Assembly (NCBI GenBank): GCA_029263015.1
Contig: JAJCYI010000139.1
Coordinates: forward strand, 1 to 64,000
DNA length: 64,000 nt
From: Saprospiraceae bacterium
GTDB lineage: Bacteria > Bacteroidota > Bacteroidia > Chitinophagales > Saprospiraceae
Direction of reading: 5' to 3'
Shown: positions 5,348 to 51,795 of the stretch, in pieces
Layout of the letters: each line of letters starts with the position of its first letter
Position numbering within the stretch: position 1 is the stretch's first letter
Made by a program: the position numbers and the translations under genes
The notes under the pieces: model-generated
Told to the model about the DNA's origin: nothing
The model's input: only the letters and a program-made list of their open reading frames with translations
The model's database searches: none

Positions 5348-6559
5348 CGAAGTGAATTTAGAACGTTCGATGTTTCCATGGATGCTGAATATCTTTTCAA
5401 TGACCGAAAGCGGGATTTCGGATTTTACGGAGAGTTGTTTTTTAAATTGTTCGTTTAAATCTTTGGTGGACAACTTGTAATGTTCCCGAATAAAACCGAG
5501 AAAGAGTTTCATTTTTTGCAGGGCAAGTTGTCGGTGGTTGTTTTGAATGAAATGAAGGCGGCCAATAGTGTTGATAAATTCCAGGGAAGTGTTTTCGTTC
5601 TGCTCCAAAACAGGGATGATTCGCTGCCGGCGTTTGGCACGGAAAATCAGATATAGCACTGCCAGGCCCAATAAAATATACCAGCCCCAGGCCAGCGATG
5701 GTTGCGACAGGATATATTTCAATGGACTATTGCCAAACCCCCTGTTACCCTGGCCAGGTAATTCAAAGCTCCGGGTTGTTTTATCCCAAAGTATGGGGCC
5801 TTTTTCGAGATGTAATAAAACTTTTTCGACATATTCCCGACCTTCTTTTTTTACTATATGGAAATTGGTGAATGCCAGTGAGGTGGTGTGAAAATAAAAA
5901 TTTCCTTTCCCATATTTAGCACGGGCAAAATTGACTAATGTGTCATTGATGATTCCGAGAGAAGTAAATTCATGTTGATATTCACAAAATAAATCGGGCG
6001 GCATATAACCCCATTCGAAATATTGGTCATCGGCACGATAACGGTAATTAAATTCATACCCAGATACTTTATTTAAATCCTCATGGGGAAAATTTAAAGT
6101 CGCGATAGAATCGCCAAAAAAATATTCATCTTCCGTATAATAAAAAGAATCCCGATCATAAGTGAGGTCGATACAATTTTCTCCGCTTATAGTGTCCAAT
6201 AATTCAAAGGAAACAAGCGGTGAAATAATAAAGGCATCATTTCCTCTTTCCACAAAGTTGAGTAAGGCATTTAATCGCAAAGAATCAATCCATAACGCGG
6301 GGCCGAGGTAAAAATAACTTCCTGTTTTCTCTTTTTTGTTTAATTGGATAGTTAGACTGTCATTAATGTTTTCCAATCCCTCCTCTGGAAAATATTCTTC
6401 CAATAACCCATAAATAATAGATGTGCCATAAGGGTCGCCTGAGTCGGCTCGGTAATGCTCCCGCCAACTATGCCTTTTGCTGTCGCCCATAATATACATC
6501 AGCCCCGCCATGAAGATGAGGGATATTCCGATGATTATTATGATTTTTTTATTTGGCAT
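5288..6559 (-). CDS. DUF4350 membrane protein
   Basis: A 423-residue protein with an N-terminal membrane segment (about residues 5-25), a DUF4350 domain (DPYGTSIIYGLLEEYF at about 42-57; rhodopsin-like glutamine amidotransferase fold in this family) and a second membrane segment near 300 (WGWYILLGLAVLYLIFRA), followed by a cytosolic helical tail. DUF4350 genes usually accompany DUF4129, MoxR ATPase and DUF58 genes in one operon. Here the DUF4129 gene is upstream (28-bp gap) but no MoxR or DUF58 gene follows. The biochemical function is unknown. The 3' end overlaps a repeated fragment. Confidence 0.85.
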   Translation of the reverse strand: MPNKKIIIIIGISLIFMAGLMYIMGDSKRHSWREHYRADSGDPYGTSIIYGLLEEYFPEEGLENINDSLTIQLNKKEKTGSYFYLGPALWIDSLRLNALLNFVERGNDAFIISPLVSFELLDTISGENCIDLTYDRDSFYYTEDEYFFGDSIATLNFPHEDLNKVSGYEFNYRYRADDQYFEWGYMPPDLFCEYQHEFTSLGIINDTLVNFARAKYGKGNFYFHTTSLAFTNFHIVKKEGREYVEKVLLHLEKGPILWDKTTRSFELPGQGNRGFGNSPLKYILSQPSLAWGWYILLGLAVLYLIFRAKRRQRIIPVLEQNENTSLEFINTIGRLHFIQNNHRQLALQKMKLFLGFIREHYKLSTKDLNEQFKKQLSVKSEIPLSVIEKIFSIHGNIERSKFTSENTLATFHRKMEGFYLKCK

Positions 6560-6564
6560 ATTCC

Positions 6565-6590
6565 GTAATCGGAAGTTGTGCTTCCGGTTA
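6565..6590. repeat. REP-like palindrome, copy 2
   Basis: GTAATCGGAAGTTGTGCTTC and the complementary arm CCGGTTA form a palindrome of the same type as at 3859-3885. It fills the gap between the DUF4129 and DUF4350 genes and overlaps the stop codon of the former (6588-6590), so it would form a hairpin in the shared mRNA. Confidence 0.65.
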
Positions 6591-7292
6591 TGTGCGATCT
6601 GCTATTTTGTTGACATCTTTCAAGGCTGATTTGAATTTCGGTTGGAGCAATAGAAAATCTTCTTTGTTTAATTCAGCCTTTCCGTACCATATTTTTTCAA
6701 AGACCAAAGTGATTTGCTGGATATTTTTAAAAAATGGCGACCCTGCTAATTCACGCAAATACTCGCCATTGGTCTTGTCTTTTTTCCATTTTATTTTTTT
6801 CTGTAAGGATAGTTCTTTTAATATCGTTAAATAATACAACCGAATTGCCATTGAGTAGTTGCCAGCAGCGATGGCTTGTTTTATTGGGTTTTCCAATTCT
6901 GCTTCTTCCAAATTGTCTTCTATTTTTTCAAGATCAACATTGGAAACAGGCTTGAGTTTTTTATCTTTTGGTAGGAATACGTTATCGCCTGTTAATGCTT
7001 TTATCAATATGAAAAAAAGCAGGACAATACCGATGGTGATAATGAAAAATTTTAAAAAAGTTCCAATCCCTTCAAATTTTACTGGTCCTTTTTCTTTGCG
7101 GTCTTTTTTCTTTTTTTCTTTTTTTTCTTCCGAATAATCAACTCCCTCTGTGAGTGAATTATATTTTTTGTCATCAAATTTTCGCTGCTCAATATTTTGT
7201 TTGAAATAATCTTGCTGAGGAGATTGCGCAACGGCAACGTTGTCAAGATTGGTCAGGATGATAATGGAGAAGATGAGAAAATATCGGGACAT
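6588..7292 (-). CDS. DUF4129 domain protein
   Basis: A 234-residue protein with an N-terminal signal peptide (cut after VAVAQ, about residue 23), a very lysine-rich stretch (EEKKEKKKKDRKEKG, about 55-69), one membrane segment near 78-100 and a cytosolic DUF4129 domain (AIAAGNYSMAIRLYYLTILK ... FEKIWYGKAELN). It is the first gene of a two-gene unit with DUF4350. Members of this neighbourhood are linked to MoxR chaperone operons; the exact role is unknown. Confidence 0.82.
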   Translation of the reverse strand: MSRYFLIFSIIILTNLDNVAVAQSPQQDYFKQNIEQRKFDDKKYNSLTEGVDYSEEKKEKKKKDRKEKGPVKFEGIGTFLKFFIITIGIVLLFFILIKALTGDNVFLPKDKKLKPVSNVDLEKIEDNLEEAELENPIKQAIAAGNYSMAIRLYYLTILKELSLQKKIKWKKDKTNGEYLRELAGSPFFKNIQQITLVFEKIWYGKAELNKEDFLLLQPKFKSALKDVNKIADRT

Positions 7293-7337
7293 AAGAAACC
7301 TATATCAATGGAAATTTAAATAAAAATAAAAGCTGAG

Positions 7338-8708
7338 TTAGGTTTGAAAAGTCTCAGTTAGTGCAAGTGTCGCATCTACGTGAGCATTGGTGTTTATTTG
7401 TTCTAATTTAACAAATGAAATATTATTAATTAAATCTTCATCCAACGGCATTTCTATTTTAATATAATTATCGGTAAAGCCCGACATCATGTCTTTGGTT
7501 TTACTTTGCTCAAAAAGCACAGGTCTTATTTCACCAATATGTTGATCGTAAAAATAGCGACGCTTTTTTTGTGATAAGATGGTCAGCATTTCATTTCGGC
7601 GACGGCGTTCTTCCATAGGCACCTCATTTGGCATTTCAGCAGCCAACGTATTGGGGCGTTCCGAATAAGTAAATACGTGCAGGTAAGAAATTTCCAGTTG
7701 ATTGATAAAATTATAGGTCTCCAAAAAATCTTCTTCGGTCTCACTAGGAAAACCGACAATTGCATCCACGCCAATGCAGCAATGCGGCATTGATTTTTTG
7801 ATATGTGCCACACGGTCAACATAAAGCTCCCTTTTGTACCGGCGGCGCATCATTTTCAATTGCTTGTTGTTACCGCTCTGCAAAGGGATGTGGAAATGGG
7901 GGACAAAGCGTTTACTCTGTGCTACAAATTCGATGATTTCGTCAGTGCAAAGATTCGGCTCGATAGAAGAAATACGAAAACGGTCAATGCCCTCCACCTC
8001 GTCCAATTCCGTTATCAGGTCAATGAACATAGCTGCCTTTTTTGGGCGAACACCCTCAATCCCTTTTGTGCCGCCAGCCTGTTCGGTAGGTAGATTTCCA
8101 AAGTCCCCAATATTCACGCCTGTCAGCACGATTTCCTTTACGCCCATCCCGGCAATCTTCTTGGCATTTTCGACGGCGCTCTCCACGGTGTCGCTGCGGC
8201 TTTGGCCACGGGCCATTGGGATTGTGCAAAATGCACATGAATAATCGCAACCATCCTGTACTTTTAGGAAGGATCGGGTGCGGTCCCCAAAGCTGAAGGC
8301 ATGTTTAAAAACATTGACTTCTTTCACTTCTCCCGCCTGAACCAGGCCTTTGCCAGGGGCTTTTTCCAACTGCTCGACAAACTCCAAAATGCGGAATTTT
8401 TCGGCAGCGCCCAGCACGAGGTCCACGCCTGGGATTTCGGAAATCTCCTTTGGTTTCAATTGTGCGTAACATCCGATCACCACCACCTTTGCTTCTGGCG
8501 ACTTCCGCAACGCCCGTCGCACAATCTGCCGGCATTTCCGGTCTGCAAAATCCGTCACCGAGCAAGTGTTGATGACACAGATGTCGGCCCCATCGTCGAA
8601 CTTTACTTCCTGGTAGCCGGCATCCCCGAACAACCTGCCAATGCTGGAGGTTTCAGAATAATTGAGCTTGCAGCCGAGGGTATGGAAGGATACTGTTTTT
8701 GGTGTCAC
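7338..8708 (-). CDS. mtaB: tRNA t6A37 methylthiotransferase MtaB
   Basis: A 456-residue radical-SAM methylthiotransferase that converts t6A37 of tRNA to ms2t6A. The N-terminal UPF0004 domain carries the three cysteines for the second iron-sulfur cluster (C13 in HTLGCKLN, C49 in CVINTC, C80 in VIGCYA). The radical SAM motif is C154-x3-C158-x2-C161 (GCDYSCAFC). A TRAM-like C-terminal region follows. The length and the CKLN motif distinguish MtaB from MiaB and RimO. It is transcribed alone, away from the large gene at 8814. Confidence 0.93.
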   Translation of the reverse strand: MTPKTVSFHTLGCKLNYSETSSIGRLFGDAGYQEVKFDDGADICVINTCSVTDFADRKCRQIVRRALRKSPEAKVVVIGCYAQLKPKEISEIPGVDLVLGAAEKFRILEFVEQLEKAPGKGLVQAGEVKEVNVFKHAFSFGDRTRSFLKVQDGCDYSCAFCTIPMARGQSRSDTVESAVENAKKIAGMGVKEIVLTGVNIGDFGNLPTEQAGGTKGIEGVRPKKAAMFIDLITELDEVEGIDRFRISSIEPNLCTDEIIEFVAQSKRFVPHFHIPLQSGNNKQLKMMRRRYKRELYVDRVAHIKKSMPHCCIGVDAIVGFPSETEEDFLETYNFINQLEISYLHVFTYSERPNTLAAEMPNEVPMEERRRRNEMLTILSQKKRRYFYDQHIGEIRPVLFEQSKTKDMMSGFTDNYIKIEMPLDEDLINNISFVKLEQINTNAHVDATLALTETFQT

Positions 8709-8716
8709 TTTCGATC

Positions 8717-8798
8717 AGGTAAAAAGTAAAAAGTAAAAAGGCAAAAGTTAGTAGGGTGCTTGCTTTATACTTTTGCCTTTATACTTTTTACTTGTTCA
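8717..8798. terminator. AT-rich hairpin between mtaB and the cargo gene
   Basis: Repeats of AAAAAGT on the left (AAAAAGGCAAAAGT) pair with ACTTTTGCCTTTATACTTTT on the right around a GC-richer loop. It lies just after the stop of the gene at 8814 (minus strand) and upstream of mtaB, so it probably ends the transcript of the cargo gene. Confidence 0.55.
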
Positions 8799-8813
8799 AC
8801 CGCAAAGGTAAAG

Positions 8814-11354
8814 CTATTTCACAATCACTTTCCTCGTCGTGAATCGTCCATCTTCCAAAGTCCATTTCACAAAATAAATACCAGTCGGCAACTGGCCGTT
8901 TAGGTCGATAGCCTGCTGTTCTGTGTCTGTAGGAATTTTTTTTGATAAAATAGTCTTTCCATTAAAATCGAAAAGGCTGATTAGCGAAGTGTCTTTTGTT
9001 TTTTCAAAAAGTAGATTGAAAGTGCCATTAGAGGGATTGGGTGCAATGGAAAAGAGCATTTTTTCAATGAAATATTTATCCGCTGCAATTAATGTGCTAT
9101 CGTAAATCATATCCTTCCCTATCACGATATCAGAATAAGCACCCAACTGGAATAAACTGTCTTGTCCATCCACACCAATAGCATCGTAAACCTCAAAAGA
9201 TAAATTCTGTATACCATTTGGATTTCCAGTTGGTGCATCTTCTTTGAAGCCAAGTTTAATACTACCTATTTCACCATAAACATTTGAAAATGCCAAACCA
9301 TCTTTTCTTGAAATCGTTATTTCGATTCTTCCTTCTTCTTGGTTCACTTCTTCAATAACCATTACCTCTTCAAGATTACCTAAAGGAGTATTGTCCTGAA
9401 GTTTCAGAATAGCAAGCCCTGGTACTTGTTCCCAAATGCTAGTATCGTACTTAACTGTAAAAGCTATTCCATAGAGTTCGCTAATTGGAGAAACCTGAGT
9501 GCCAACCAAAATATTTGCCCTGATACTTCTTTGAAGGCTGTTAGCGATAGTCGTTGAAATTTCAACTTTATTTATGTCGAGATAAATTTCTCCTTCGGCA
9601 AATGGTGCCAATGTTTCGGTAAATATGAAGTCAGGCCTCTGTTTGTTATAATTCACCTCCAATACATGCCAATCTAACTCATTGACCACACCATCTCCAT
9701 TGCAGTCCTGATGCTTTTGGTCTATAGCACCTGAAAGAGAGCCCCACATATCAGCATAATATGGTGACCATACGATTGACGAAGGGTTGCGGATAGGGCC
9801 GTTTGCATTGTTTCCCATTGTAATTCCAATATGTAGCAAATCATCATTTTTAGCGATTCCATCATCATTGCCATCGCCAGGCCATACACAATCCGAATCA
9901 CAAAATACAGATTGGGAACACGTGGTAATCATCCCATTATTGTAAAATTCTTGAATCATTGGAATTGCATCTAAAGCTACATTGACATTTTCAATAAAAT
10001 TTGAATCAGGCTGGCGGTGGTAAGAGAAAGCAGCGTCCAGCACAATACTACTTCCTACTGGAAGTTCCTCCGCACTAAACGACATTACGATATTGGGCTC
10101 CCAAAAAAGTCCGATAACTGCTTTCTGAGACCAGCCAAACTGATCGTTGGGATTGTCGAAAAAAAGATGGTTTACAAATTCAATACTTGCTGTATCGTAT
10201 CCACTATTACCATAGGTTATGGGGGTTCCATCTCGCCATTTCCCCTCTAAGAGATTGTAATATTCGAAATCAAGTGTAGGCTTTCGCACAACCCATGCTG
10301 GTGGAGGGTCAAGTGATGTTAGGTCATAATGAACCGATAATTTTTCCATATTATGATTGAGAAATGTAATAGCCTGAATAGGAGGATTTACCCCGATTCC
10401 TCCACTGGAGCAAAAAACACCAGTATCGTTATTGTCCTTATTGTACAGATAGGCACTATTGAGGATGGTGTCACAACCAAAATAATCATCGTTGAAGCAT
10501 CCTATATCTATGTCTGCTCCAATTGCCATCCTGAAATTCAATAAACCTTCAACCGATTTATTAAAAACCTTATGGCGGGTAAAAACCGTATGATTCAATA
10601 CTTCATTATCTGAGCAATTGAAAGCATAGGACATAAAATGGACTTCCACTCCCAATGGGACACCCCCTGTTTCAAGATGAACATTCTGAATGTCATTGAA
10701 AACTGTCCAAGTCAATTCATCCGGCACAACAGATAGTAAATCGGGCCCGATGACTGGGTATTCGCCATTTATAGGTTCATAAATCCCATTACCATTTCGA
10801 TCAAAGAAAGGTGCAAGTTCCTGGTCGGGCAGCGCAAAACCCATGACCGTTTCAAAATGTGGATTTCCTTTCGCAGGCCATGACAGGATGGAGGGCGGTA
10901 CTGTCGAGTCAATAACCCCATTGTCTTCAAAGTCTTTTATGATTTGCAATATGCTCCCTCGGTTTGTTTTCCAGACATGGTTAAAATTTTCACAGCCATC
11001 AGGTAGTACGCCCATTGTTGTGTCATCAATAGGGCCAGCCCAAAAATCTGCTATGCCATTGGCATTGCCATAAACCTGGCATGCAGTTTTAAGGTTGCCG
11101 CCCGAATCATATCCTCCAAGCCATATGCCAGCAGCATAAAAAGTAGAGGTTTCTATAGTTTGTCCAGGAACATAAGGTACGATAAATTTCCCGTCGCTCC
11201 TGTCCCAGAAAAAATCACCGCCCGTGCAGACGGCAGCCTTCACCTTATTGGCAGCAATATATTCAATGGCCGAATTGTCGCACTGGGAGTTTGCCTTTTG
11301 AAAAACGAGAAACGACAAAAGGAGGGTTGGTAAGATAGTTTTAGATAGCTTCAT
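8814..11354 (-). CDS. Giant T9SS cargo with dockerin/cohesin-like parts, copy A
   Basis: An 846-residue secreted protein. A signal peptide (about 1-23, ending KANSQ) is followed by a large unassigned N-terminal region (FWAGPIDDT, FDRNGNGIYEPINGEYP; the latter looks like a Ca-binding loop). Near residues 490-560 there is a dockerin-like pair of Ca loops (GDGNDDGIAKNDDLL and DCNGDGVVNELDWHVLEVNY), then a cohesin-like beta domain (GIAFTVKYDTSIWE, about 625-740), and a T9SS type A sorting domain (FSIAPNPSNGTFNLLFEK ... GIYFVKW). It is probably secreted by PorU/PorV and attached to the surface or released. The gene at 11445 is a tandem paralogue; the two share an identical 5' block. Function unknown. 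Confidence 0.85.
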   Translation of the reverse strand: MKLSKTILPTLLLSFLVFQKANSQCDNSAIEYIAANKVKAAVCTGGDFFWDRSDGKFIVPYVPGQTIETSTFYAAGIWLGGYDSGGNLKTACQVYGNANGIADFWAGPIDDTTMGVLPDGCENFNHVWKTNRGSILQIIKDFEDNGVIDSTVPPSILSWPAKGNPHFETVMGFALPDQELAPFFDRNGNGIYEPINGEYPVIGPDLLSVVPDELTWTVFNDIQNVHLETGGVPLGVEVHFMSYAFNCSDNEVLNHTVFTRHKVFNKSVEGLLNFRMAIGADIDIGCFNDDYFGCDTILNSAYLYNKDNNDTGVFCSSGGIGVNPPIQAITFLNHNMEKLSVHYDLTSLDPPPAWVVRKPTLDFEYYNLLEGKWRDGTPITYGNSGYDTASIEFVNHLFFDNPNDQFGWSQKAVIGLFWEPNIVMSFSAEELPVGSSIVLDAAFSYHRQPDSNFIENVNVALDAIPMIQEFYNNGMITTCSQSVFCDSDCVWPGDGNDDGIAKNDDLLHIGITMGNNANGPIRNPSSIVWSPYYADMWGSLSGAIDQKHQDCNGDGVVNELDWHVLEVNYNKQRPDFIFTETLAPFAEGEIYLDINKVEISTTIANSLQRSIRANILVGTQVSPISELYGIAFTVKYDTSIWEQVPGLAILKLQDNTPLGNLEEVMVIEEVNQEEGRIEITISRKDGLAFSNVYGEIGSIKLGFKEDAPTGNPNGIQNLSFEVYDAIGVDGQDSLFQLGAYSDIVIGKDMIYDSTLIAADKYFIEKMLFSIAPNPSNGTFNLLFEKTKDTSLISLFDFNGKTILSKKIPTDTEQQAIDLNGQLPTGIYFVKWTLEDGRFTTRKVIVK

Positions 11355-41920: not shown

Positions 41921-41965
41921 AAAGTTGTACTTTTTGTTATAAATTTGTACACAAAGTACAACTTT
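41921..41965. promoter_or_regulatory. Palindrome at the second DUF4143 start codon
   Basis: AAAGTTGTACTTTTTGT and ACACAAAGTACAACTTT are near-complementary (one to two mismatches) around an AT-rich centre. The right arm ends directly before the ATG at 41966. The architecture matches 5131-5178 at the other DUF4143 gene. Confidence 0.6.
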
Positions 41966-43147
41966 ATGTATCCAAGAAAGATTTTCCGGGCACTTGAGAG
42001 CCATTTAGCAGAAAAGGCAGTCTCCGTTATTACTGGTATGCGGCGGGTTGGGAAGACCACTGCCGTAAAATATATGCTCGACAAAACACCACACACCAAT
42101 AAGCTTTACCTTGACTTGGAGCGCTTGGAAGACCGGGCGATTTTCAAGCAAAAAAATTTTAGTGAAATACAGACCGATTTGGAAATAAAGGGGATTGATT
42201 TTTCAAAACCAGCGGTCATCGCCCTTGACGAAATACAGCTCATCCCAGAGGTGGCTTCCTTTATCAAGTATTACCACGACCATTTCCAAGTAAAATTCAT
42301 TGCTTCTGGTTCTAGCTCCTATTATCTACGTAACCGTTTTACCGAAAGCCTTGCAGGGCGCAAACAAGTATTCGAGCTCTATCCGCTCGATTTTATAGAA
42401 TTTTTGCATTTCAAGAATATTGGCCCGAAGCCGTTGGAGGGGTTCGGCATGTCTGCCTACCGCCGTACCTTATATGCAAAGTACAAACCGCTTTATGAAG
42501 AATATATCCGGTACGGCGGTTTCCCAGAGGTTGTACTGACGGGTTCGGTAGAAAAAAAAGAACGCTACCTAAAAGATGTGCTTAATTCATATATAGAACT
42601 GGATGTCAAACTGCTGTCTGATTTTTCGGCCATTGACGACTTGTACAGGCTAGTAGCCTTGTTGGCTTCAAGAATAGGCCGAAAGCTGGACTACTCCAAG
42701 ATCGGTGTACTGCTCGGCGTTGGCCGGCATAAGATAAAAGACTATATCCACCTGTTGGAAAAAACCTATTTCCTGCACTTGGTCAAGCCTTATTCGAAAA
42801 ATATAGACAGGGCCATTGCCCAGCAGCAAAAAGTCTATCTGGCGGATACGGGGCTGGTGAATCAACTGGCACAGATAGACAGTGGCTCTCTGTTTGAAAA
42901 TGCCATCGCCGTGCAACTGCTCCGCATGGGCGAAATCAATTATTTCCAGCTCAAATCAGGCCAGGAGATAGATTTTATATTCGACAAAAAAGTAGCTGTG
43001 GAAGTAAAAGAAACCCCTACCGAAAGGGATTTGAAGCGCTTGAACGCCCGAGCAGCAACGCTTGGCCTATCCGATGTCAGGTTGATTGGCAGGTATCCAT
43101 CGGGCAGCGGGTTTGAAGAATTTATTTGGGGAGGGAGTGTCTTTTAG
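41966..43147 (+). CDS. AAA+ ATPase with DUF4143 domain (copy 2)
   Basis: A 393-residue P-loop ATPase of the same family as 3979-5127. Walker A is ITGMRRVGKTTAVKYML (about 22-38), Walker B AVIALDEIQLIPE (about 76-88), sensor-like ASGSSSYYLRNRF (about 107-119). The DUF4143 domain ends with the nuclease-like QLKSGQEIDFIFDKKVAVEVKE. I use ATG 41966 because the track-like alternative TTG at 41945 lies within the palindrome. Compared with copy 1 it is clearly a different subgroup, so it was acquired separately. Confidence 0.88.
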   Translation: MYPRKIFRALESHLAEKAVSVITGMRRVGKTTAVKYMLDKTPHTNKLYLDLERLEDRAIFKQKNFSEIQTDLEIKGIDFSKPAVIALDEIQLIPEVASFIKYYHDHFQVKFIASGSSSYYLRNRFTESLAGRKQVFELYPLDFIEFLHFKNIGPKPLEGFGMSAYRRTLYAKYKPLYEEYIRYGGFPEVVLTGSVEKKERYLKDVLNSYIELDVKLLSDFSAIDDLYRLVALLASRIGRKLDYSKIGVLLGVGRHKIKDYIHLLEKTYFLHLVKPYSKNIDRAIAQQQKVYLADTGLVNQLAQIDSGSLFENAIAVQLLRMGEINYFQLKSGQEIDFIFDKKVAVEVKETPTERDLKRLNARAATLGLSDVRLIGRYPSGSGFEEFIWGGSVF

Positions 43148-43510: not shown

Positions 43511-45034
43511 TCACCTCCCCGCCCGCTCCAATGCCTCCATCGCCATGCCCCAGAAATGCTCGTAAGGGATGGCCTCCACCTCGTGCGGTGCCAGGAGGAA
43601 CTGCACGGGCTGGCTGCTCATGCGCCGCCGCAGTTCCGCTGATTTTTCCTCTGCTCCTTCTTTTTTGAAATCCGCCTTTTGGATGTTCAGCAACGACTGC
43701 ACCAGGCACCAGGAGCGGAAAGTGTCGTCGCCCTCCTTGAGGTGGCGGGCATTGTATTTTTCGAGGGCGAGCATGCGGTCGTAGGAATCGTCGTAGCGCT
43801 TTTCATATAGCAAGTAAATGGCATGGGTGATGAGTACTGGGATGTTCATGCCTCGCTTGTCCCTGGAAAAATTCGGCACTTCGTTGAGGAAACGGGCTGG
43901 CCGGAACTTGCTTTTCTCCATGTCCGTTTCGGGCAGCACGATCTTGCCAGCGGCGATCAGGAGGTGAATGTAGCCCCCGTAGATTTTCCAGCTTTCTTGC
44001 TCTGCCGGGGGGAGGTATTTAAAGCGCTTGTTATTAGTGGCATCCTTGTGCAGCATATAAGCCTGTTGGTAGTCCTGCTTGTGAAATTTTAAAGATAGGT
44101 AGAGTTCGGTGGTCTTATACCAGCCGACAGAATATTTTACGACCATGCCCAATGCTTTAGCTGCCATTTTTTCAGCCTTCCCGTATTCTCTAGTCATGGT
44201 AAGGCCGACGAGTAAGGTGTTGTTGAAAATAGCAAAAGTCGTTTTAGGCGTGGAGTCTTTTTTTTCAAAATGCTGGAGTGCTTCTATGCTGACTGCTATC
44301 ACGCCAGGGTAGTCATAGGCAATCTCCCGTTCCAATCTTTTTATCATGTAATAATAAAGGTGGAAGCGGTAACTTTCTATATTATCTACAAATGGTTCGA
44401 GTTCTTTCAGGTGTTTTCTTGCTTCTTCTCCGATCCATGGCTTGGCGGAGCGAGAAAGGACAAAGGGAGCAATGAGTTCATTGTATTTGCATTCTGCCTT
44501 GACAGTAATCGTAAAGGCTTCAAGGCTTTTGCGAACTAACTCTTGGAAATAACGCCTTTTCTTTTCATCTGGTTCTCTTGTTGTATAATGATATAATAAA
44601 AGCCTTGAAATTTCCAATACAACTTCAACGGATTCAAGTTTTATTGCAGCTGGCAATGTCTTCTTCATTAATTTCAGGGCAGCACCGTATGCCCCTCTAA
44701 CACCCATTATTTTAATCGCTGCCAAGTTTTTCCAACAATTATAAAGCCCTACCTGAGCATCATTAAACTCTGGTTGCTTTAAGTCCAGATGAAAAATAAC
44801 ATTAACCAGTCTTCTAAAAAACCTGTTTTTAAAATTTTTGTACTGGGTGTGCTTCCCATTCTTGTCCGGCCCAAAGAAAAAAGCAGCAGCCTCATCATCC
44901 GAACCGAATTTCCCATTTTCTAACCGTTCATAGAATAGCTCATAGCGGTTGTCGGCATCATCATACCCTAGCACATTGAGCTGTTTTCTTTTGTGGCGGG
45001 TGACGACGTACATTAGATCTTCCAAATTTTTCAT
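43511..45034 (-). CDS. Helical protein of unknown function (MKNLEDL family)
   Basis: A 507-residue, mainly alpha-helical protein with no signal peptide and no membrane segment. It starts MKNLEDLMYVVTRHKRKQLNVLG, then carries a conserved-looking block DDEAAAFFFGPDKNGKHTQYKNFKNRFFRRLVNVIF (in parts, about 43-80). The rest looks like a TPR-like superhelix with many charged helices. I recall a family of such proteins that is expanded in Saprospirales, but no function is established. It is divergent from the row of short units at 45373-46050; that arrangement resembles TPR regulators encoded beside small peptides. It has no HTH that I can see, so a direct DNA-binding role is not supported. Confidence 0.6.
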   Translation of the reverse strand: MKNLEDLMYVVTRHKRKQLNVLGYDDADNRYELFYERLENGKFGSDDEAAAFFFGPDKNGKHTQYKNFKNRFFRRLVNVIFHLDLKQPEFNDAQVGLYNCWKNLAAIKIMGVRGAYGAALKLMKKTLPAAIKLESVEVVLEISRLLLYHYTTREPDEKKRRYFQELVRKSLEAFTITVKAECKYNELIAPFVLSRSAKPWIGEEARKHLKELEPFVDNIESYRFHLYYYMIKRLEREIAYDYPGVIAVSIEALQHFEKKDSTPKTTFAIFNNTLLVGLTMTREYGKAEKMAAKALGMVVKYSVGWYKTTELYLSLKFHKQDYQQAYMLHKDATNNKRFKYLPPAEQESWKIYGGYIHLLIAAGKIVLPETDMEKSKFRPARFLNEVPNFSRDKRGMNIPVLITHAIYLLYEKRYDDSYDRMLALEKYNARHLKEGDDTFRSWCLVQSLLNIQKADFKKEGAEEKSAELRRRMSSQPVQFLLAPHEVEAIPYEHFWGMAMEALERAGR

Positions 45035-45372: not shown

Positions 45373-45435
45373 AATTGAGGTGTTAGGAAATGTAAAGAGT
45401 GTCTTTGAATAGGCGTCTTCATTCTTATAATTTTG
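45373..45435 (+). promoter_or_regulatory. Promoter module of short unit 1
   Basis: GTGTTAG at 45380-45386, TTTG (-33) at 45404-45407 and TAATTTTG (-7, exact consensus) at 45428-45435. The box-to-(-7) distance is 48 nt and the -33 to -7 gap 20 nt, the same as in units 2 and 3. Confidence 0.7.
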
Positions 45436-45471
45436 CGCTAACATTTTAATCAACCTCAAAAAACCAAAACT

Positions 45472-45600
45472 ATGCTCTCCACTATTATCTCTCTATTGAT
45501 TGCCCTTGGAACAATCGTCAACCAAGCCGACTTCGACGATCTCTCCCAACAAGAACAGGATGATATGATAGAAATTGTTGTTGATGACATCAACCAATGA
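45472..45600 (+). CDS. 42-aa exported-looking peptide (unit 1)
   Basis: The ORF starts at ATG 45472, 36 nt after the -7 box, and ends in TGA at 45598-45600. The product begins with a hydrophobic helix, MLSTIISLLIALGTIVNQA, with a plausible signal-peptidase site after NQA, followed by a strongly acidic tail (DFDDLSQQEQDDMIEIVVDD). The unit is closed by a strong terminator. It lies divergently from the helical protein at 43511. A precursor of a signalling peptide, a small exported effector or a toxin-like peptide are all possible. Confidence 0.55.
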   Translation: MLSTIISLLIALGTIVNQADFDDLSQQEQDDMIEIVVDDINQ

Positions 45601-45610
45601 GCAGTCCTCA

Positions 45611-45650
45611 ATCCGGCATTTGAAAAGACACTTTTGAAAATGCCGGATTT
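45611..45650 (+). terminator. Terminator of short unit 1
   Basis: AATCCGGCATTT / AAATGCCGGATT hairpin followed by TTTT, just after the peptide stop. Confidence 0.85.
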
Positions 45651-45688
45651 TTCTCCATCAAATCACAAAAGTTGAAACTGCAAAAATT

Positions 45689-45747
45689 GGGGTGTTAGGA
45701 ATGGAGGGAAGTGTCTTTGTATGAAATAAAATACCGCTGCAACTTTG
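45689..45747 (+). promoter_or_regulatory. Promoter module of short unit 2
   Basis: GTGTTAG at 45692-45698, TTTG at 45716-45719 and CAACTTTG (one mismatch to TAnnTTTG) at 45740-45747. The spacing equals that of unit 1. Confidence 0.65.
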
Positions 45748-45782
45748 TCCTGTCAAAAAAACAACAATTCAAAAACTAAAGC

Positions 45783-45890
45783 TATGAAAACGCCTCCTGG
45801 GCCATTGACAAAAAAAAACACCTGGCAGAAAAAATGCTGGGTGTTCCAGTTAAGCAGGACTGTTATCTGCCAACTGGGTACTGCCAACTG
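45783..45890 (+). CDS. Short ORF of unit 2 (35 aa, doubtful)
   Basis: ATG 45783 lies 35 nt after the -7 box, as in unit 1, and the leader (AACTAAAGCTATG) is similar. The product, MKTPPGPLTKKNTWQKK then CWVFQLSRTVICQ, does not resemble the first peptide, and the ORF runs through a hairpin (AACACC ... GGTGTT, about 45819-45845). It looks like a unit whose coding part was deleted or replaced. Confidence 0.25.
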
Positions 45891-45899
45891 AAAAATGGG

Positions 45900-45955
45900 G
45901 TGTTAGAAAACCGCAAAATTGTCCTTGAAAAGAAAAAAAGGTGGAAGCACCTTTG
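45900..45955 (+). promoter_or_regulatory. Promoter module of short unit 3
   Basis: GTGTTAG at 45900-45906, CTTG at 45924-45927 and CACCTTTG at 45948-45955, again 48 and 20 nt apart. Only a 10-codon ORF follows (45976). Confidence 0.6.
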
Positions 45956-46014
45956 CGGTACATTAAGTTGAAAACATGCGAGTTTCGATTGCTTTTGCGC
46001 GCTCTTAGAATTAG

Positions 46015-46055
46015 AAAGTGCCCGGTACCTGTCGGTGCTGGGTGCTTTTTTAAAG
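46015..46055 (+). terminator. Terminator of short unit 3
   Basis: GTGCCCGGTACC and GGTGCTGGGTGC can pair with G-U wobbles, followed by six T. It ends the roughly 100-nt unit 3, which may therefore be a non-coding RNA or a decayed copy. Confidence 0.6.
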
Positions 46056-46190
46056 AAACCAGAAGCGACGTTTCTTCTACAATCACTTGAAACACTAAAA
46101 AGCTATATATCTCTGGCCAGACCATATAGGGGCGGATGCCGAAAAGCCCATTTTTGAATAGAGTAGGCGTTAAGCTTTAAAACTAAAATT

Positions 46191-47036
46191 ATGAAAAATT
46201 TAATTCTTTTATTAACCTCGTTGATCACAATGTCCACTATTGATGTTTCAAATATTCCTTCAGTTTTTGGAGGGAGTAAATTAATTATTGCGACTACGCC
46301 GTTTGCTGACAATGTAGACCCAAGGGAGTCATGTAGTATGGACTTGGTGAACTCTTATCGTGGGATCACTAGTGAAATACCCCGACTAACTAATAATGAC
46401 ATTGAACAAATTGGTATAAATCATAACTACATTTTAAACTTGGCTGTAATTGAAATGAGTAAAACCCCCGGTATCCCTTCCCTGAATGAAGTTAAAGGAA
46501 TATTCAGAAATATTGAAATTCCCAATCTTGAATTTACTGATCCTGCTGTAGAGTTGAACTGGAAGAACTATTTTATGGACAATTCGATCATATCTGAAAA
46601 CGAGCTTCCGGTTCCAGTTAGGAACGCATATTACGAGATGTTAAATATTTTTTCTAGTTCAAATAATTACAATGAAGTAGAAATACAAATAAACAATTCT
46701 TTAGCCGATGTGGAAAGTTTAAACATTGATTATGTAAACAAAGATTTAATCAAAGTTATGTTGACAGTTGGAAAATATTCTGCTAAATTTTGGTTTCCAG
46801 AGAATTTAGGAGGAGATGGAATCGGATATGCTTTTTTAGTAAATAAAGGTGTTCTTGATATTGGCGATGACATCCAGGCATTGAGTATAGCGCAAGCCGA
46901 TGCCATCGGCGCTGCTGGAGGAATGCTACAATGGGTTGGGGCGGCAATATTGGGAGGTCCAGTAGGGGTTGCCGGCTTTATTGGCGGCGCATTATTTGGC
47001 GCCGGTTTCGCTTCAGCAGTGGAATGGTTAGATTGA
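46191..47036 (+). CDS. Secreted protein with glycine-rich hydrophobic tail
   Basis: A 281-residue protein with a short N-terminal hydrophobic segment (about 1-20) that may be a signal peptide or anchor, a mixed middle region, and a C-terminal 45 residues very rich in Gly and Ala (GAAGGMLQWVGAAILGG, then VGVAGFIGGALFGAGF). The tail recalls the glycine-zipper helices of bacteriocins and pore-forming peptides, and of some holins. The family is not recognised. It lies downstream of the short units and upstream of two MITEs; its leader (AAAACTAAAATTATG) is like those of the small units. The AT content is higher than in the core genes, as in other laterally acquired patches. Confidence 0.6.
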   Translation: MKNLILLLTSLITMSTIDVSNIPSVFGGSKLIIATTPFADNVDPRESCSMDLVNSYRGITSEIPRLTNNDIEQIGINHNYILNLAVIEMSKTPGIPSLNEVKGIFRNIEIPNLEFTDPAVELNWKNYFMDNSIISENELPVPVRNAYYEMLNIFSSSNNYNEVEIQINNSLADVESLNIDYVNKDLIKVMLTVGKYSAKFWFPENLGGDGIGYAFLVNKGVLDIGDDIQALSIAQADAIGAAGGMLQWVGAAILGGPVGVAGFIGGALFGAGFASAVEWLD

Positions 47037-47045
47037 AATTTCAAT

Positions 47046-47176
47046 GGGTGTATTTCAAAACTTCGTCGTATATTTTTAAAATTTTAAATCAACTTCGTAA
47101 CGCGCTGACAGTCAATTATAAACAAGTAGCGATTTTGGCCTATTATTAAGTCAGTCCGAAATTTTGAAATACACCC
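47046..47176. mobile_element. 131-bp MITE, copy A
   Basis: Begins GGGTGTATTTCAAAACTTCG and ends with the inverted CCGAAATTTTGAAATACACC C. It starts 10 bp after the stop of the 46191 gene. No clear target duplication. Confidence 0.7.
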
Positions 47177-47407: not shown

Positions 47408-47539
47408 GGGTGTATTTCAAAGTTTCGGTGTATATTTTATAAAATTTAATAATATCTGTGTAATGGATTGATATTCATAATTTAATGAATGATTATTTTA
47501 ACATACATATTGTTACGACCGAAGTTTTGAAATACACCC
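47408..47539. mobile_element. 132-bp MITE, copy B, with 8-bp target duplication
   Basis: Same ends as copy A (GGGTGTATTTCAAAGTTTCG / CGAAGTTTTGAAATACACCC). It is flanked by TTTGGTAA at 47400-47407 and 47540-47547, an exact 8-bp duplication. Interiors of the two copies differ, so they have diverged apart from the ends. Confidence 0.78.
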
Positions 47540-48169: not shown

Positions 48170-48424
48170 ATGGCACACACTTCCATCGCAGCAAAGATAA
48201 GCTCATTTTTAGCAAAGGACCTGATAGGTCGATTTGAATCGTTCATTGAAAAACTAAGCGAAGGCCGATTGTACGAATTTGAGGAAGAACTTTGCTCAAC
48301 CACGAAAGACTTTTACAACCTGGTAGCAAGAGAGTTGCTGTGTGAAGGGCGAAAAAGAGCCAGGAGAACATGCGCAAAATGGCAAGGTCCAAAGGCCTTG
48401 GCAAACTCGAAGAGCGGCCGATGA
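48170..48424 (+). CDS. IS transposase N-terminal frame (orfA)
   Basis: An 84-codon frame. The first about 60 residues (MAHTSIAAKISSFLAKDLIG...FEEELCSTTKDFYNLVA) look like the N-terminal region of ISKra4-type transposases. It ends in a nonsensical tail because the coding information continues in the -1 frame. A run AAAAA at 48349-48354 (GCGAAAAAGAGC) lies just after a stop in the -1 frame, and so in the window where slippage could join both frames. Confidence 0.65.
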   Translation: MAHTSIAAKISSFLAKDLIGRFESFIEKLSEGRLYEFEEELCSTTKDFYNLVARELLCEGRKRARRTCAKWQGPKALANSKSGR

Positions 48425-49518
48425 GCGTACAGTTGAAGACGGGCCATTACGTGAAGCCCACCGGGCTTTATGCCTGTAAAGCCCCCAGGGGCTACCAGGG
48501 GGCGAGGCATTTGCTACGGGCCCATTGGCGCCTGGTAAAAGGGGCCTCCCCTGGCTATTACAGCAATGTGTGCCTGTTGTGCGTCCTTTGCCCATCTTTT
48601 GAAGTGGCCGGACAAGTACTTGACCTTCAAGGGGTTGCCTGCAACAGGGACCGGATACGCAAGTTGGCTGTCGCATTCGGCAACAAATGCAAAGGGCAAC
48701 AACCTGCCCTGGCACACGCACCCGGGGAAAGCCTTGCCGGTAAACGGGTCGTTGTCAGCCTGGACGGCGGGCGCACTCGCACCAGGGAGTACGACGGCGA
48801 AGAGAACAAAGAGGGCAACGCCACTTTTGATACCCCCTGGCGGGAGCCCGAGCTGTTTGTCATAGACATAATGGACGGGTACGGAAAAGTGGACACGACG
48901 AGCCTGCCGGTCTATGGCTGCCTCTTTGACAAGGAAGAAACGGTGGAACTGCTGGGCGACCACTTGAAGGCTCTCGGCATCCAGTACGCACGGCAGGTCG
49001 AGGTGGTGGCCGACGGCGCCCCCTGGATATGGAACAGGGCCGGGCCCATGTTGAAGGAACTTGGCGTGCAGGATGAAAAAATTGTCGAGGTGGTGGACTA
49101 TTACCATGCCTGCAGCTATGTGCACAAAATAATAGAAGGGCTGCCCCAAAAGCACAGGGGCCGGTCAAAAGAACTGTTGAAAACATTTAAAGGCCATCTT
49201 TGGGAGGGGCAAATAGAAAAGATCGTCGAAAAATGCGAAGGGTTGTTCAAAAGGCCCGGCAAACTTGTCCGGCGGTATGTTGGCTACCTTTCAAAAAATG
49301 AAGACAGGATGCAATATGCTGATTTTCAAAAGGATAAATTAATGTGCGGCAGTGGGATCGTAGAATCGGGAATAAGAAGGATCATCAACCTCCGGTTCAA
49401 AAATGCGTCTTCTTTTTGGAAAAAAGAAAATGTCGAGTGTTTATATTTTTTGAGGGGCATCCTCCTTTCTTTCAGATGGAATATGATGATGCAAAATTTA
49501 ATTAAAACTCAATTTTAG
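48370..49518 (+). CDS. ISKra4-like DDE transposase, main frame (orfB)
   Basis: A 382-residue frame. The catalytic elements are visible: VVVSLDGGRTRTRE (first Asp), VEVVADGAPWIWNRAG, EVVDYYHACSYVHKI (second Asp), and the last block MQYADFQKDKLMCGSGIVES with the Glu, followed by RRIINLRFKNASSFWKK. The order and the GSGxVES block are those of the ISKra4 family. The true protein is probably made as an orfA-orfB fusion through -1 frameshifting; the frame is open from just upstream of 48350. Confidence 0.82.
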   Translation: MRKMARSKGLGKLEERPMSVQLKTGHYVKPTGLYACKAPRGYQGARHLLRAHWRLVKGASPGYYSNVCLLCVLCPSFEVAGQVLDLQGVACNRDRIRKLAVAFGNKCKGQQPALAHAPGESLAGKRVVVSLDGGRTRTREYDGEENKEGNATFDTPWREPELFVIDIMDGYGKVDTTSLPVYGCLFDKEETVELLGDHLKALGIQYARQVEVVADGAPWIWNRAGPMLKELGVQDEKIVEVVDYYHACSYVHKIIEGLPQKHRGRSKELLKTFKGHLWEGQIEKIVEKCEGLFKRPGKLVRRYVGYLSKNEDRMQYADFQKDKLMCGSGIVESGIRRIINLRFKNASSFWKKENVECLYFLRGILLSFRWNMMMQNLIKTQF

Positions 49519-49736: not shown

Positions 49737-50177
49737 ATGAAAACATCCACTCACACCATGCTCATTGCCCTACCATTTTTTATAATGGCATTTGGCATAT
49801 CAAATAAACCCTCATCAATAGGCGACCCAATCACCATAGAAATAAATGTGGGTAAAGGCGCCAATTGCTATGACCGTGGCCGATTATGCAATGCTAGGGC
49901 TATGGAAATGAACAACTCACAAATAGGCCCAGCAACCGATGCCCTTGGCAAAGCCTACTTCAACAGCGAAGGCCGTTTTGTGATGGAACTGAACATCCTC
50001 TTGACCGGCGCCATTACCGAAGAACTGTCTGATGGTATATTCAGCATAGAAGAAGATTTCCAACTGTCAAATGAACTGCTGACCCTCATGGGAAGGCCAT
50101 CGGATACGGTCATTTTAAACAATGGCGATTACACCGTCGAGGCGGTGGAAGGCAACAGTTACCGAATTGTGTTTTAA
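49737..50177 (+). CDS. Secreted Cys-pair protein (family copy 1)
   Basis: A 146-residue protein with a signal peptide (about 1-22). The mature part begins with a beta-strand and a Cys pair, GANCYDRGRLCNARAMEMN, then FVMELNILL, and ends with a C-terminal strand pair NGDYTVEAVEGNSYRIVF. The whole pattern is shared with the protein at 51391 (CLNYGICRVNVLA ... GIYSVLEEEGCLKVIF), so the two are paralogues. No known family is recognised. It heads a likely three-gene cassette. Confidence 0.6.
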   Translation: MKTSTHTMLIALPFFIMAFGISNKPSSIGDPITIEINVGKGANCYDRGRLCNARAMEMNNSQIGPATDALGKAYFNSEGRFVMELNILLTGAITEELSDGIFSIEEDFQLSNELLTLMGRPSDTVILNNGDYTVEAVEGNSYRIVF

Positions 50178-50237
50178 TTTAAATTGCTGTTGGCCATTGG
50201 CTTTTAGCATTTGGCCAAAAGTCAAAATATTTCAGCT

Positions 50238-51407
50238 ATGAAAACGGCAACCTTACTTCTCGCTTGGGGGCTACTTTACTGCTCCCCCTTGCTCGCTGGA
50301 ATTGTGAAAGATTCTCTTTCTGCACAATTTCCCCTCCAAGAACTGGAAGCGGAACTGTCGGGCCTCCACCAGGATTTTGAAACGGCGGGGGCTGCCCTGC
50401 AGGTAGAACTGGCCGCCGTCAACCGCATCCTCGAAAACAGCTATGCCGGACGGGGCATGGTGGCCTACTTGGAAGCCATGAACCACAAAATGGAACTGCG
50501 GGACGAAATGGCACTTCTCGAAGAAATGTACCAGCTCAACATGGCTAAGGCCCGGTATCGGAAAGGGCTGGAACTCATCAAACTGATGTACGAAAAAATA
50601 CTGGGCCTCGACCACCATTTCTATTCCCTCGAAACCTATAACAACATCGCTCAGATGACCAACCCCAATGCCTATCCCGCTTTCCAGAAATCGAAAGGGG
50701 ACATTGAGAAACGGCTCAAAAAAAACAACGACATCAGCCTGCCCAACCTCCTGAATAGCAACCCGCTCATGTCGGCCACCTTTGCACTAGTGGCCTCTTT
50801 TGTTGGGGAAGGCGAACCTCGAAACAAAGAAAAAGACTTGGAGCAAGTCGCCTGCATCCTTGATTTTACGGTGCGTATGTTTGCCGACCTGAACCTCATT
50901 TATTACGAAACCGAATTCCTCAAAGAAAGCAACAAGAACCTTAAGGCTGACTGCCTGCAGCTGTTTAAGGATTATGCAAAGATTATCGGTTACAAAGCAG
51001 CGCTCGACGTCTGCCGTGCCGACGACGATTGGGAAACAGTCTATGAAAAACTCGATCAATTTATTATCGATATGGAAGCCGATGCTGTAAAAAGCAAAGA
51101 CGACGCCGTGGCCAACCGCAACCTGATGAAGGGCATCGCCAACCTCGAATTTTCCATTGACCGCCTGCTTGATTTTTTGGAAAAATACAATGCGTTTATC
51201 GCACAGGGCGGCAAGTATTATCAAAAATTCGAAGTCATTGTTTCCAATTACCAGAACGAGGCGGCCTGCGCCAAACAATTGCCCCACCAATTTTCGACAT
51301 TAAAACAGGACATTAAATATTCCATCGAAAAATTCAAGGAGGCGTACAACATCGCTGAACTGAACGGCTCAAAACTAAAAGACTTGCTTTATGGAATCGA
51401 AGATTAA
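50238..51407 (+). CDS. Secreted helical protein between the Cys-pair genes
   Basis: A 389-residue protein from ATG 50238 (upstream TTG 50211 is unlikely). A signal peptide (about 1-21, ending SPLLAG) is followed by long helices with heptad-like patterns (residues 25-150, 235-390: LQELEAELSGLHQDFE, LEFSIDRLLDFLEKYN). It is probably an extracellular or periplasmic helical bundle. No family recognised. The 3' end overlaps the next gene by 17 bp. Confidence 0.6.
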   Translation: MKTATLLLAWGLLYCSPLLAGIVKDSLSAQFPLQELEAELSGLHQDFETAGAALQVELAAVNRILENSYAGRGMVAYLEAMNHKMELRDEMALLEEMYQLNMAKARYRKGLELIKLMYEKILGLDHHFYSLETYNNIAQMTNPNAYPAFQKSKGDIEKRLKKNNDISLPNLLNSNPLMSATFALVASFVGEGEPRNKEKDLEQVACILDFTVRMFADLNLIYYETEFLKESNKNLKADCLQLFKDYAKIIGYKAALDVCRADDDWETVYEKLDQFIIDMEADAVKSKDDAVANRNLMKGIANLEFSIDRLLDFLEKYNAFIAQGGKYYQKFEVIVSNYQNEAACAKQLPHQFSTLKQDIKYSIEKFKEAYNIAELNGSKLKDLLYGIED

Positions 51408-51795
51408 AACCTTAAAACCAGGAGGGCTTTTTTCATCCGATAAATTCCGCTTCGCCCTCGTCGAAGTCGAATTCGGCTCGCCGATGAAAAACTGTCTGAA
51501 TTACGGCATCTGCCGAGTCAATGTACTCGCAGCATCATCGCAAGACCGTTGCCCCTGCCGCTGCCTGGCGACCGTCAGGGCCTATGAAGGCGGGCTGGTA
51601 CAGTTTGTTTTTGACAAAAAAAGCATGACCGCCAGCACTGTTGAAAAACATTTCAAAAACGGGCTGTTCCGCGTGACTGATGCTTATGTGTTGGTATCAG
51701 AAGTAGTGGCCAAGATCGGTCGGGAGAGCTTTGTCGTATTACCGGGCATTTATTCGGTCTTAGAGGAGGAGGGGTGTTTGAAAGTGATTTTCTGA
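51391..51795 (+). CDS. Cys-pair protein (family copy 2, no signal peptide)
   Basis: A 134-residue protein that starts inside the end of the previous gene (17-bp overlap), so it is translationally coupled. It has KNCLNYGICRVNVLA, a second Cys cluster CPCRCLA, then LVQFVFDKK and the C-terminal strands GIYSVLEEEGCLKVIF, all in the same order as the protein at 49737. It lacks a hydrophobic N-terminus, so one relative is exported and the other stays inside. Function unknown; the Cys cluster could bind metal. Confidence 0.6.
   Translation: MESKIKTLKPGGLFSSDKFRFALVEVEFGSPMKNCLNYGICRVNVLAASSQDRCPCRCLATVRAYEGGLVQFVFDKKSMTASTVEKHFKNGLFRVTDAYVLVSEVVAKIGRESFVVLPGIYSVLEEEGCLKVIF

What the first reader, a model, noticed from the sequence alone, without database searches (positions are those of the whole stretch)
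45373..46055. Three tandem short transcription units with invariant promoter geometry
Three times in 580 bp the sequence shows GTGTTAG, then TTTG/CTTG, then a TAnnTTTG-like box. The first box starts exactly 48 nt before the -7 box in all three (45380-45428, 45692-45740, 45900-45948), and the -33 to -7 gap is 20 nt each time. Each unit ends in a hairpin. The conserved GTGTTAG box, about 20 nt upstream of -33, looks like an activator site. Only unit 1 keeps a convincing peptide ORF; units 2 and 3 may be decayed or non-coding. This repeat architecture is not explained by any feature type I know.
Basis: partly seen in the sequence, partly recalled or inferred. Interest (0 to 1): 0.75.

Follow-up and report, generated by a model that had tools for sequence, protein, structure and literature searches.

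The report
Repeated promoters of a peptide–receptor-like locus
The three repeats look like copies of one dedicated promoter in an undescribed gene cluster of Saprospiraceae bacteria, where a helical-repeat protein sits beside a tiny peptide gene whose tail is conserved, which might be a cell-to-cell or internal peptide signal.

Summary
GTGTTAG, a -33 box and a -7 box recur three times with the stated spacing; the strict pattern has no other exact hit in the 6.95-Mb genome. The element is found in 6 of 13 congeners and two other genera.

It is promoter-like, and its core is TGTC-N24-TAnnTTTG. That core is enriched around the family of the neighbouring 507-aa gene, with at most a modest excess genome-wide. 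GTGTTAG is one clade's version of the upstream box.

Unit 1 encodes a peptide under purifying selection, divergent from a predicted TPR-like superhelix. Short ORFs next to this family share a C-terminal tail (EIIIIDMNGV, AIVIVDLDEL; window MIEIVVDDINQ): 29 of 74 near against 3 of 132 far, and in held-out loci 6 of 38 against 0 of 52. Unit 2 has no conserved ORF. In relatives unit 3 precedes a DUF805b-led gene.

Best reading: a co-regulated locus pairing a TPR protein with a small peptide, working like Rgg–SHP systems. Membership is not shown: no HTH found, no RRNPP sequence match, no export route. Transcription is untested.

The parts
43511..45034 (-). 507-aa all-helical TPR-like protein, no Pfam or NCBIfam family; candidate receptor/regulator
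45374..45435 (+). Promoter 1: GTGTTAG 45380-45386, TGTC 45400-45403, TTTG 45404-45407, TAATTTTG 45428-45435
45472..45600 (+). Unit-1 peptide gene, 42 aa, hydrophobic N-terminus, tail MIEIVVDDINQ; homologs next to TPR genes
   Evidence: selection measured on three homologs, not on this copy
45610..45649 (+). Unit-1 hairpin followed by T-run, terminator-like
   Evidence: z -4.3; not listed by the scan
45686..45747 (+). Promoter 2: GTGTTAG 45692-45698, TGTC 45712-45715, TTTG 45716-45719, CAACTTTG 45740-45747
45784..45891 (+). Unit-2 reading frame (35 codons and stop) with internal hairpin 45817-45845; not conserved as protein (MKTRV-stop in G009 and G007, MKILF-stop in G008)
45894..45955 (+). Promoter 3: GTGTTAG 45900-45906, TGTC 45920-45923, CTTG 45924-45927, CACCTTTG 45948-45955
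45956..46084 (+). Extra stretch (129 nt, against 6 nt in G009 and G011, 30 in both G008 copies, 34 and 28 in G002) with a 10-codon ORF 45976-46008 and a strong terminator-like hairpin 46013-46050
46129..46169 (+). DUF805b RNA (RF02914), leader of the next gene
46191..47036 (+). 281-aa protein with signal-like N-terminus (by eye), no family; unit-3 cargo
49737..51795 (+). Three further cluster genes (146, 398, 134 aa) with counterparts seen by eye in G002; the last is a 'CxNYGICR' protein

Best explanation
The three repeats are three copies of one dedicated promoter: a clade-specific upstream box (around TTTGnGGTGTTAGnAA) plus a core TGTC-N24/25-YAnnTTTG. Through them one input switches on the neighbouring units together: (1) a short peptide with a conserved C-terminal tail, (2) a short hairpin transcript without a conserved ORF, (3) a DUF805b-led gene for a probably secreted protein. 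The input is most likely the divergently encoded 507-aa TPR-like protein, with the peptide as its partner or ligand, working like the Rgg-SHP autoinduction loop of streptococci. Shown: sequence conservation, geometry, coding of the peptide family, its linkage to the TPR family, and the enrichment of the core there. Inferred: transcription, DNA binding, peptide-TPR contact, secretion, export of the peptide and signalling.
For: Geometry: 20 of 21 instances with the -33 box at 24, TGTC exact in 20 of 21. The regexes that collected them left the box-to--33 distance free only within a range. PWM scan of the window and 79 TPR loci: all 20 hits above 14 bits (lowest 17.0) lie in the window and the 6 loci whose homologs are 44% identical or more, 0 in the other 73; five of those six genomes supplied the matrix. 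Congeners: 5 of 5 with a close TPR homolog carry 3-4 copies; of the 7 others searched for both, 1 carries one copy. Core TGTC at gap 23-25: 33 of 79 loci, 17 of 35 clusters of the 58 aligned members, control mean 1.8 clusters. Peptide pN/pS 0.16/0.65, 0.09/0.84, 0.12/0.77. Tail ORFs near against far: 29 of 74 and 3 of 132, held-out 6 of 38 and 0 of 52. TPR-like model pLDDT 90. SHP facts: passages of PMC3679016.
Against: No HTH found in the TPR N-terminus (that model has pLDDT only 73). No RRNPP family among sequence matches. Foldseek finds generic TPR folds, none at E 0.001 or better. G010 has one promoter copy without a close TPR homolog. Three of six whole genomes, and the own one, show a modest general excess of the core (105 against 66 reversed control, and 31 against 20), so part of it may be ordinary promoter signal. 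The best control 4-mers reach 15 (TTTG, overlapping TTTGTC) and 14 (TTTT) clusters against 17. The core fades in distant members (2 of 51 held-out loci). Most peptides show no export signal that I could recognise by eye. The tail pattern was read from some of the same loci before it was counted; relatedness is not corrected for in the Fisher tests; pS is near saturation.
Confidence: 0.55

Rival explanations
1. Ordinary regulon: the repeats are housekeeping-type promoters duplicated with their operator, controlled by an unlinked activator; the TPR protein and peptide have another job (scaffold, chaperone).
For: -33/-7 spacing is the usual kind for the phylum (recalled; TAnnTTTG papers seen only as a search listing). 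No DNA-binding domain found in the TPR protein. One copy in G010 lies apart from any close TPR homolog. Modest genome-wide excess of the core in some genomes.
Against: Co-occurrence of the box with one TPR subclade and of the core with the wider family; different upstream boxes in other TPR clades (L095/L099, L142).
Confidence: 0.3
2. Peptide toxin or bacteriocin locus: the small hydrophobic peptide and the downstream proteins are antibacterial, and the TPR protein gives immunity or control.
For: Hydrophobic peptide; variable proteins with signal-like N-termini after the same promoter; one family peptide has a double-glycine-like leader (motif recalled; L285).
Against: The conserved part across the family is the short acidic-hydrophobic tail, not the body. 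No PADLOC match for the TPR protein, which was not otherwise tested for immunity.
Confidence: 0.1
3. Unit 3 in the window is a leader/attenuator: promoter 3 reads through the 10-codon ORF and terminator into the DUF805b leader, so the extra stretch adds a second control step.
For: In G008, G009, G011, G002 and L082 the same promoter leads within 100 nt or so into DUF805b. No TA/CAnnTTTG box lies between promoter 3 and the DUF805b element.
Against: The stretch was seen only in this genome among those compared; no antiterminator was identified; a CATTTTTG inside the DUF805b element (46149) could itself be a -7 box; it may simply be an insertion.
Confidence: 0.35
4. Chance or mobile-element repeats without function.
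For: Repeats lie near an ISKra4-like transposase gene.
Against: Fixed spacing with diverged spacers across species; 0 in 60 resampled windows; conserved peptide after promoter 1.
Confidence: 0.03

Closest known systems
Rgg-SHP (RRNPP peptide quorum sensing, streptococci)
   Same: TPR-type protein next to a very short gene, often divergent, sometimes downstream; the functional end is the C-terminal hydrophobic/acidic part of the peptide (SHP DIIIIVGG, EGIIVIVVG; passages of PMC3679016); a shared promoter type before peptide and neighbouring genes.
   Different: Bacteroidota, not Firmicutes; 507 aa; no HTH found; an acidic residue follows the aliphatic run; no sequence match to RRNPP; export and import not shown.
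Rap proteins (RRNPP without DNA binding; recalled)
   Same: All-helical TPR; Rap chains are among the 50 listed of 1202 Foldseek matches, TM-score by target 0.49-0.54.
   Different: E 0.02-0.03, no better than many eukaryotic TPR proteins.
Bacteroidota -33/-7 promoter (TTG ... TAnnTTTG)
   Same: -7 box and spacing.
   Different: TGTC core element plus clade-specific upstream box, concentrated at this gene family.
DUF805b RNA (RF02914)
   Same: Window 46129-46169 scores 35.8 against cut-off 35.6.
   Different: Here it is a leader downstream of the third promoter; DUF805b is matched in 37 of 60 genomes, among them G001, G004 and G005 without this promoter.

Membership tests
RRNPP (Rgg, Rap, NprR, PlcR, PrgX) | TPR peptide-binding domain | tested here: inconclusive
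   TPR-type fold predicted, pLDDT 90; profile matches TPR structures weakly (best E 3.5e-4). Peptide binding untested.
[quoted passage not shown]
   No match for the N-terminal 96 residues by profile or fold; model of moderate quality.
RRNPP (Rgg, Rap, NprR, PlcR, PrgX) | Sequence homology to known members | tested here: not met
   No RRNPP family among Pfam or NCBIfam hits of 58 members, nor among the 31 sequences of the PDB profile search.
RRNPP (Rgg, Rap, NprR, PlcR, PrgX) | Adjacent short propeptide gene with conserved C-terminus | tested here: met
   weaker in the held-out set. That it is a propeptide is not shown.
RRNPP (Rgg, Rap, NprR, PlcR, PrgX) | Peptide exported, matured and re-imported | not testable with these tools
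   Only a hint: double-glycine-like leader in L285.
DUF805b RNA | Score at or above Rfam cut-off | tested here: met
   35.8 against 35.6; conserved in 8 aligned leaders.
Bacteroidota -33/-7 promoter | TTG at -33 and TAnnTTTG at -7, about 20 nt apart (recalled) | tested here: met
   -7 is CAnnTTTG in units 2 and 3.
Bacteroidota -33/-7 promoter | Transcription start about 7 nt downstream | not testable with these tools
   No RNA data.

The most novel reading that the evidence does not exclude
A previously undescribed peptide-signalling system of Bacteroidota (Saprospirales): a TPR receptor senses the C-terminal tail of a tiny co-encoded peptide and autoactivates a dedicated TGTC-type promoter repeated before the peptide, a small RNA and secreted effector genes, with receptor, tail and upstream box diversifying together.
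Probability: 0.35. Interest if true: 0.9.

Novelty: new variant of a known kind. Interest (0 to 1): 0.7.

Why it matters
Intracellular-receptor peptide signalling of the RRNPP type is described for Firmicutes and their phages and plasmids (PMC10075063, start of abstract in the listing and passages). A conserved TPR-protein/tail-peptide pair with its own promoter type would give a concrete, testable candidate in a Bacteroidota lineage, and would suggest a role for a set of unannotated small ORFs. It also places a DUF805b leader within a defined transcription unit.

Tried and rejected
Strict pattern with 2 mismatches: no signal above control. Promoter model R1 in 199 family genomes: 15 genomes at E 0.001 or better, but only 3 (own, G155, G149) reach 34 bits; the other 12 score 26.2 or less and were treated as chance. 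TPR homologs in viral contigs: none. Consensus RNA structure of the leader: 7 pairs, 1 with a two-sided change, so weak. PADLOC: of 6 proteins only the AAA_14/DUF4143 gene matched. Repeat of the peptide promoter within 27 TPR loci: clearly above 12 shuffles each only in four GTGTTAG-clade loci (L079, L080, L081, L089); L084, L107, L138 and L148 exceed by 1-2 letters; L082, which has two copies, did not exceed. The L099 second promoter was seen by eye. BFVD fold search: helical-repeat matches, none at E 0.001 or better. GTGTTAG copies at 44697 and 47273 are not matched by model R1.

Literature searches: DUF805b, 0 papers; '224 candidate structured RNAs' or DUF805, listing only; RRNPP with Bacteroidetes, 4 papers, passages of one read; Saprospiraceae/quorum sensing/peptide/promoter/TPR, 10 of 172 listed, none of the 10 holding 'Saprospiraceae'; GTGTTAG as a word, 0; TAnnTTTG with Bacteroid, listing only; Rgg/SHP/Bacteroidetes, listing, passages of PMC3679016 read; peptide pheromone/Bacteroidota/tetratricopeptide/small proteins, 4 listed. 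'Undescribed' means these searches and the family libraries only.

Full report
Observation. The three repeats are present as described and are not chance: exact hits of the strict pattern in the 6.95-Mb genome are these three alone, and 60 resampled windows gave none. Directly before each -33 box stands TGTC, 24 nt from the -7 box.

Conservation. The neighbouring 507-aa gene led to matching loci in congeners. By model R1 the element occurs in 6 of 13 congeners (G002 3, G007 4, G008 3, G009 3, G010 1, G011 3) and outside the genus in G149 (1) and G155 (2). Of 21 instances, 20 have the -33 box 24 nt after the start of the GTGTTAG-like box, 1 has 23; the gap to the -7 box is 20 in 12 and 21 in 9; TGTC is exact in 20. 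They were collected by patterns that left the spacing only partly free and by homology. A position matrix from the first 16 gave 20 hits above 14 bits (lowest 17.0) in 1.85 million positions: all in the window and in the six loci (L079-L083, L089) whose 507-aa homologs are 44% identical or more, none in the 73 others. Five of these six genomes supplied the matrix; L082 is new. Among congeners, 5 of 5 with a close homolog carry 3-4 copies; of the 7 others searched for both, 1 does (G010: one copy, on a contig without a homolog; its homologs are at most 25% identical). G013 was not searched for the 507-aa protein and has no promoter match.

What the units are. Unit 1 encodes a 42-aa peptide. Homologs lie beside the 507-aa gene in 22 of 79 loci, all 22 on the divergent strand (about ten loci hold under 900 nt upstream). 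Three homologs compared over 44 codons show purifying selection (pN 0.09-0.16, pS 0.65-0.84, the latter near saturation). Unit 2 keeps promoter and hairpin, but its frame is MKTRV-stop in G009 and G007, MKILF-stop in G008, 35 codons in G011 and in the window: probably a short RNA. In G008, G009, G011, G002 and L082 unit 3's promoter leads into a DUF805b leader and a gene for a protein with a signal-like N-terminus, judged by eye. In the window 129 nt separate the -7 box from the conserved leader start, against 6 in G009 and G011, 30 in G008, 34 and 28 in G002; the extra stretch holds a 10-codon ORF and the strongest hairpin (z -6.7).

The 507-aa protein. No Pfam or NCBIfam family. Among 58 members single ones hit TPR-type models; the profile matches TPR structures (best E 3.5e-4). 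AlphaFold gives an all-helical model, pLDDT 90.2, pTM 0.88. Foldseek has no PDB match at E 0.001 or better; generic TPR proteins lead, Rap proteins appear at E 0.02-0.03 with TM-score by target 0.49-0.54. The N-terminal 96 residues gave no HTH match, so direct DNA binding is unproven.

A promoter type tied to this protein family. Among 915 TAnnTTTG sites in the window and 79 loci, TGTC at gap 24 occurs 34 times against a mean of 4.2 over the gaps examined. Within 1 kb of the TPR gene it occurs (gap 23-25) in 33 of 79 loci, in 17 of the 35 clusters that 58 aligned members form at 50% identity; other 4-mers average 1.8 clusters, the best being TTTG (15, overlapping TTTGTC) and TTTT (14). Whole genomes: own 31 against 20 reversed control; six others 128 against 113 in all, of which three show an excess (105 against 66) and three do not (23 against 47). 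So the core is concentrated at these loci, but a weaker general promoter signal is not excluded. Upstream boxes differ by clade: GTGTTAG here, GGTCATAAG in L095/L099, a GGTATG type in three copies in L142. This is what one expects if a regulator and its box diverge together, but it does not name the regulator.

The tail peptide. Many ORFs after such promoters are short peptides or 'CxxxGICR' proteins. The peptides share a C-terminal tail of aliphatic residues and an acid: EIIIIDMNGV, KGIIIIDVIGL, AIVIVDLDEL, KVIVVDITGP; in the window MIEIVVDDINQ. With TAnnTTTG upstream, 29 of 74 short ORFs within 1 kb of the TPR gene carry it against 3 of 132 farther away (p 4e-12, relatedness ignored); shuffled residues give 3.6%. 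Without demanding a promoter it is 50 of 1078 against 35 of 4073. Two of the three far ones look like genuine extra copies. I wrote the tail pattern after seeing some of these peptides, so I tested it unchanged on 51 further loci (60 chosen from the matches, 9 dropped as 90% or more identical to the first set): 6 of 38 near, 0 of 52 far, p 0.004; two of the six look weak by eye. Without demanding a promoter: 21 of 722 near, 11 of 1248 far; a stricter pattern made afterwards, 9 and 2. The TGTC core was found in only 2 of these 51, so it belongs to the nearer part of the family. Further hints of signalling: L267 has four tandem copies of one peptide gene, one with an internal stop, and the L285 peptide has a double-glycine-like leader (motif recalled). 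The GICR protein is found in 17 of 79 loci (up to 6 kb of flank) and 2 of 51 (about 3 kb of flank), 0 in 180 kb of other sequence.

Mechanism. Best supported: one input drives repeated copies of a dedicated promoter before a peptide, a short RNA and cargo, and the neighbouring TPR protein is the likeliest input, with the peptide as its partner. Streptococcal Rgg–SHP loci offer the nearest working model: divergent short hydrophobic peptide, C-terminal mature form, activation of the shp promoter (passages of PMC3679016). Membership is not claimed: sequence homology fails, HTH inconclusive, export unseen. RRNPP systems are described for Firmicutes and their mobile elements (PMC10075063, passages), whose authors analysed only Firmicutes and viruses.

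Limits. All evidence is sequence and prediction. Counts over loci are not corrected for common descent except for the 35-cluster count. Many of the genomes are metagenome assemblies (record titles).

Noticed in passing
window 46129-46169: DUF805b RNA just above Rfam cut-off; in relatives a further conserved stretch 5' of it (CTGGCCAG / CCGGCCGG / CTAGCTAG palindrome with matched changes) suggests that the element is longer than the Rfam model.
   Followed up: partly
window 41945-43147: AAA_14/DUF4143 ATPase with PADLOC PDC-S01 matches (E 3e-65).
   Followed up: no
window 48370-49518: ISKra4-family-like transposase (below the family cut-off) between the unit-3 gene and the further cluster genes.
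   Followed up: no
window 47046-47087 and 47408-47449: 42-nt direct repeat (83%) GGGTGTATTTCAAA... about 360 nt apart.
   Followed up: no
L267 1696-2743: Four tandem copies (about 349 nt apart) of a 44-aa tail-peptide gene next to a distant TPR homolog; one has an internal stop.
   Followed up: partly
L285: Two adjacent TPR-like genes, a peptide with double-glycine-like leader and a GICR protein together.
   Followed up: partly
L179 (G149) 5530-9676: Promoter, short peptide-like ORF, DUF805b-like stretch, small Cys-containing peptide, then a protein with a GLPGLI motif and a large outer-membrane-type protein (read by eye, names recalled).
   Followed up: no
G251 genome: Several dispersed TGTCCTGG...GGTAACTTTG promoter-like sites on separate contigs, perhaps another regulon or repeat family.
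   Followed up: no
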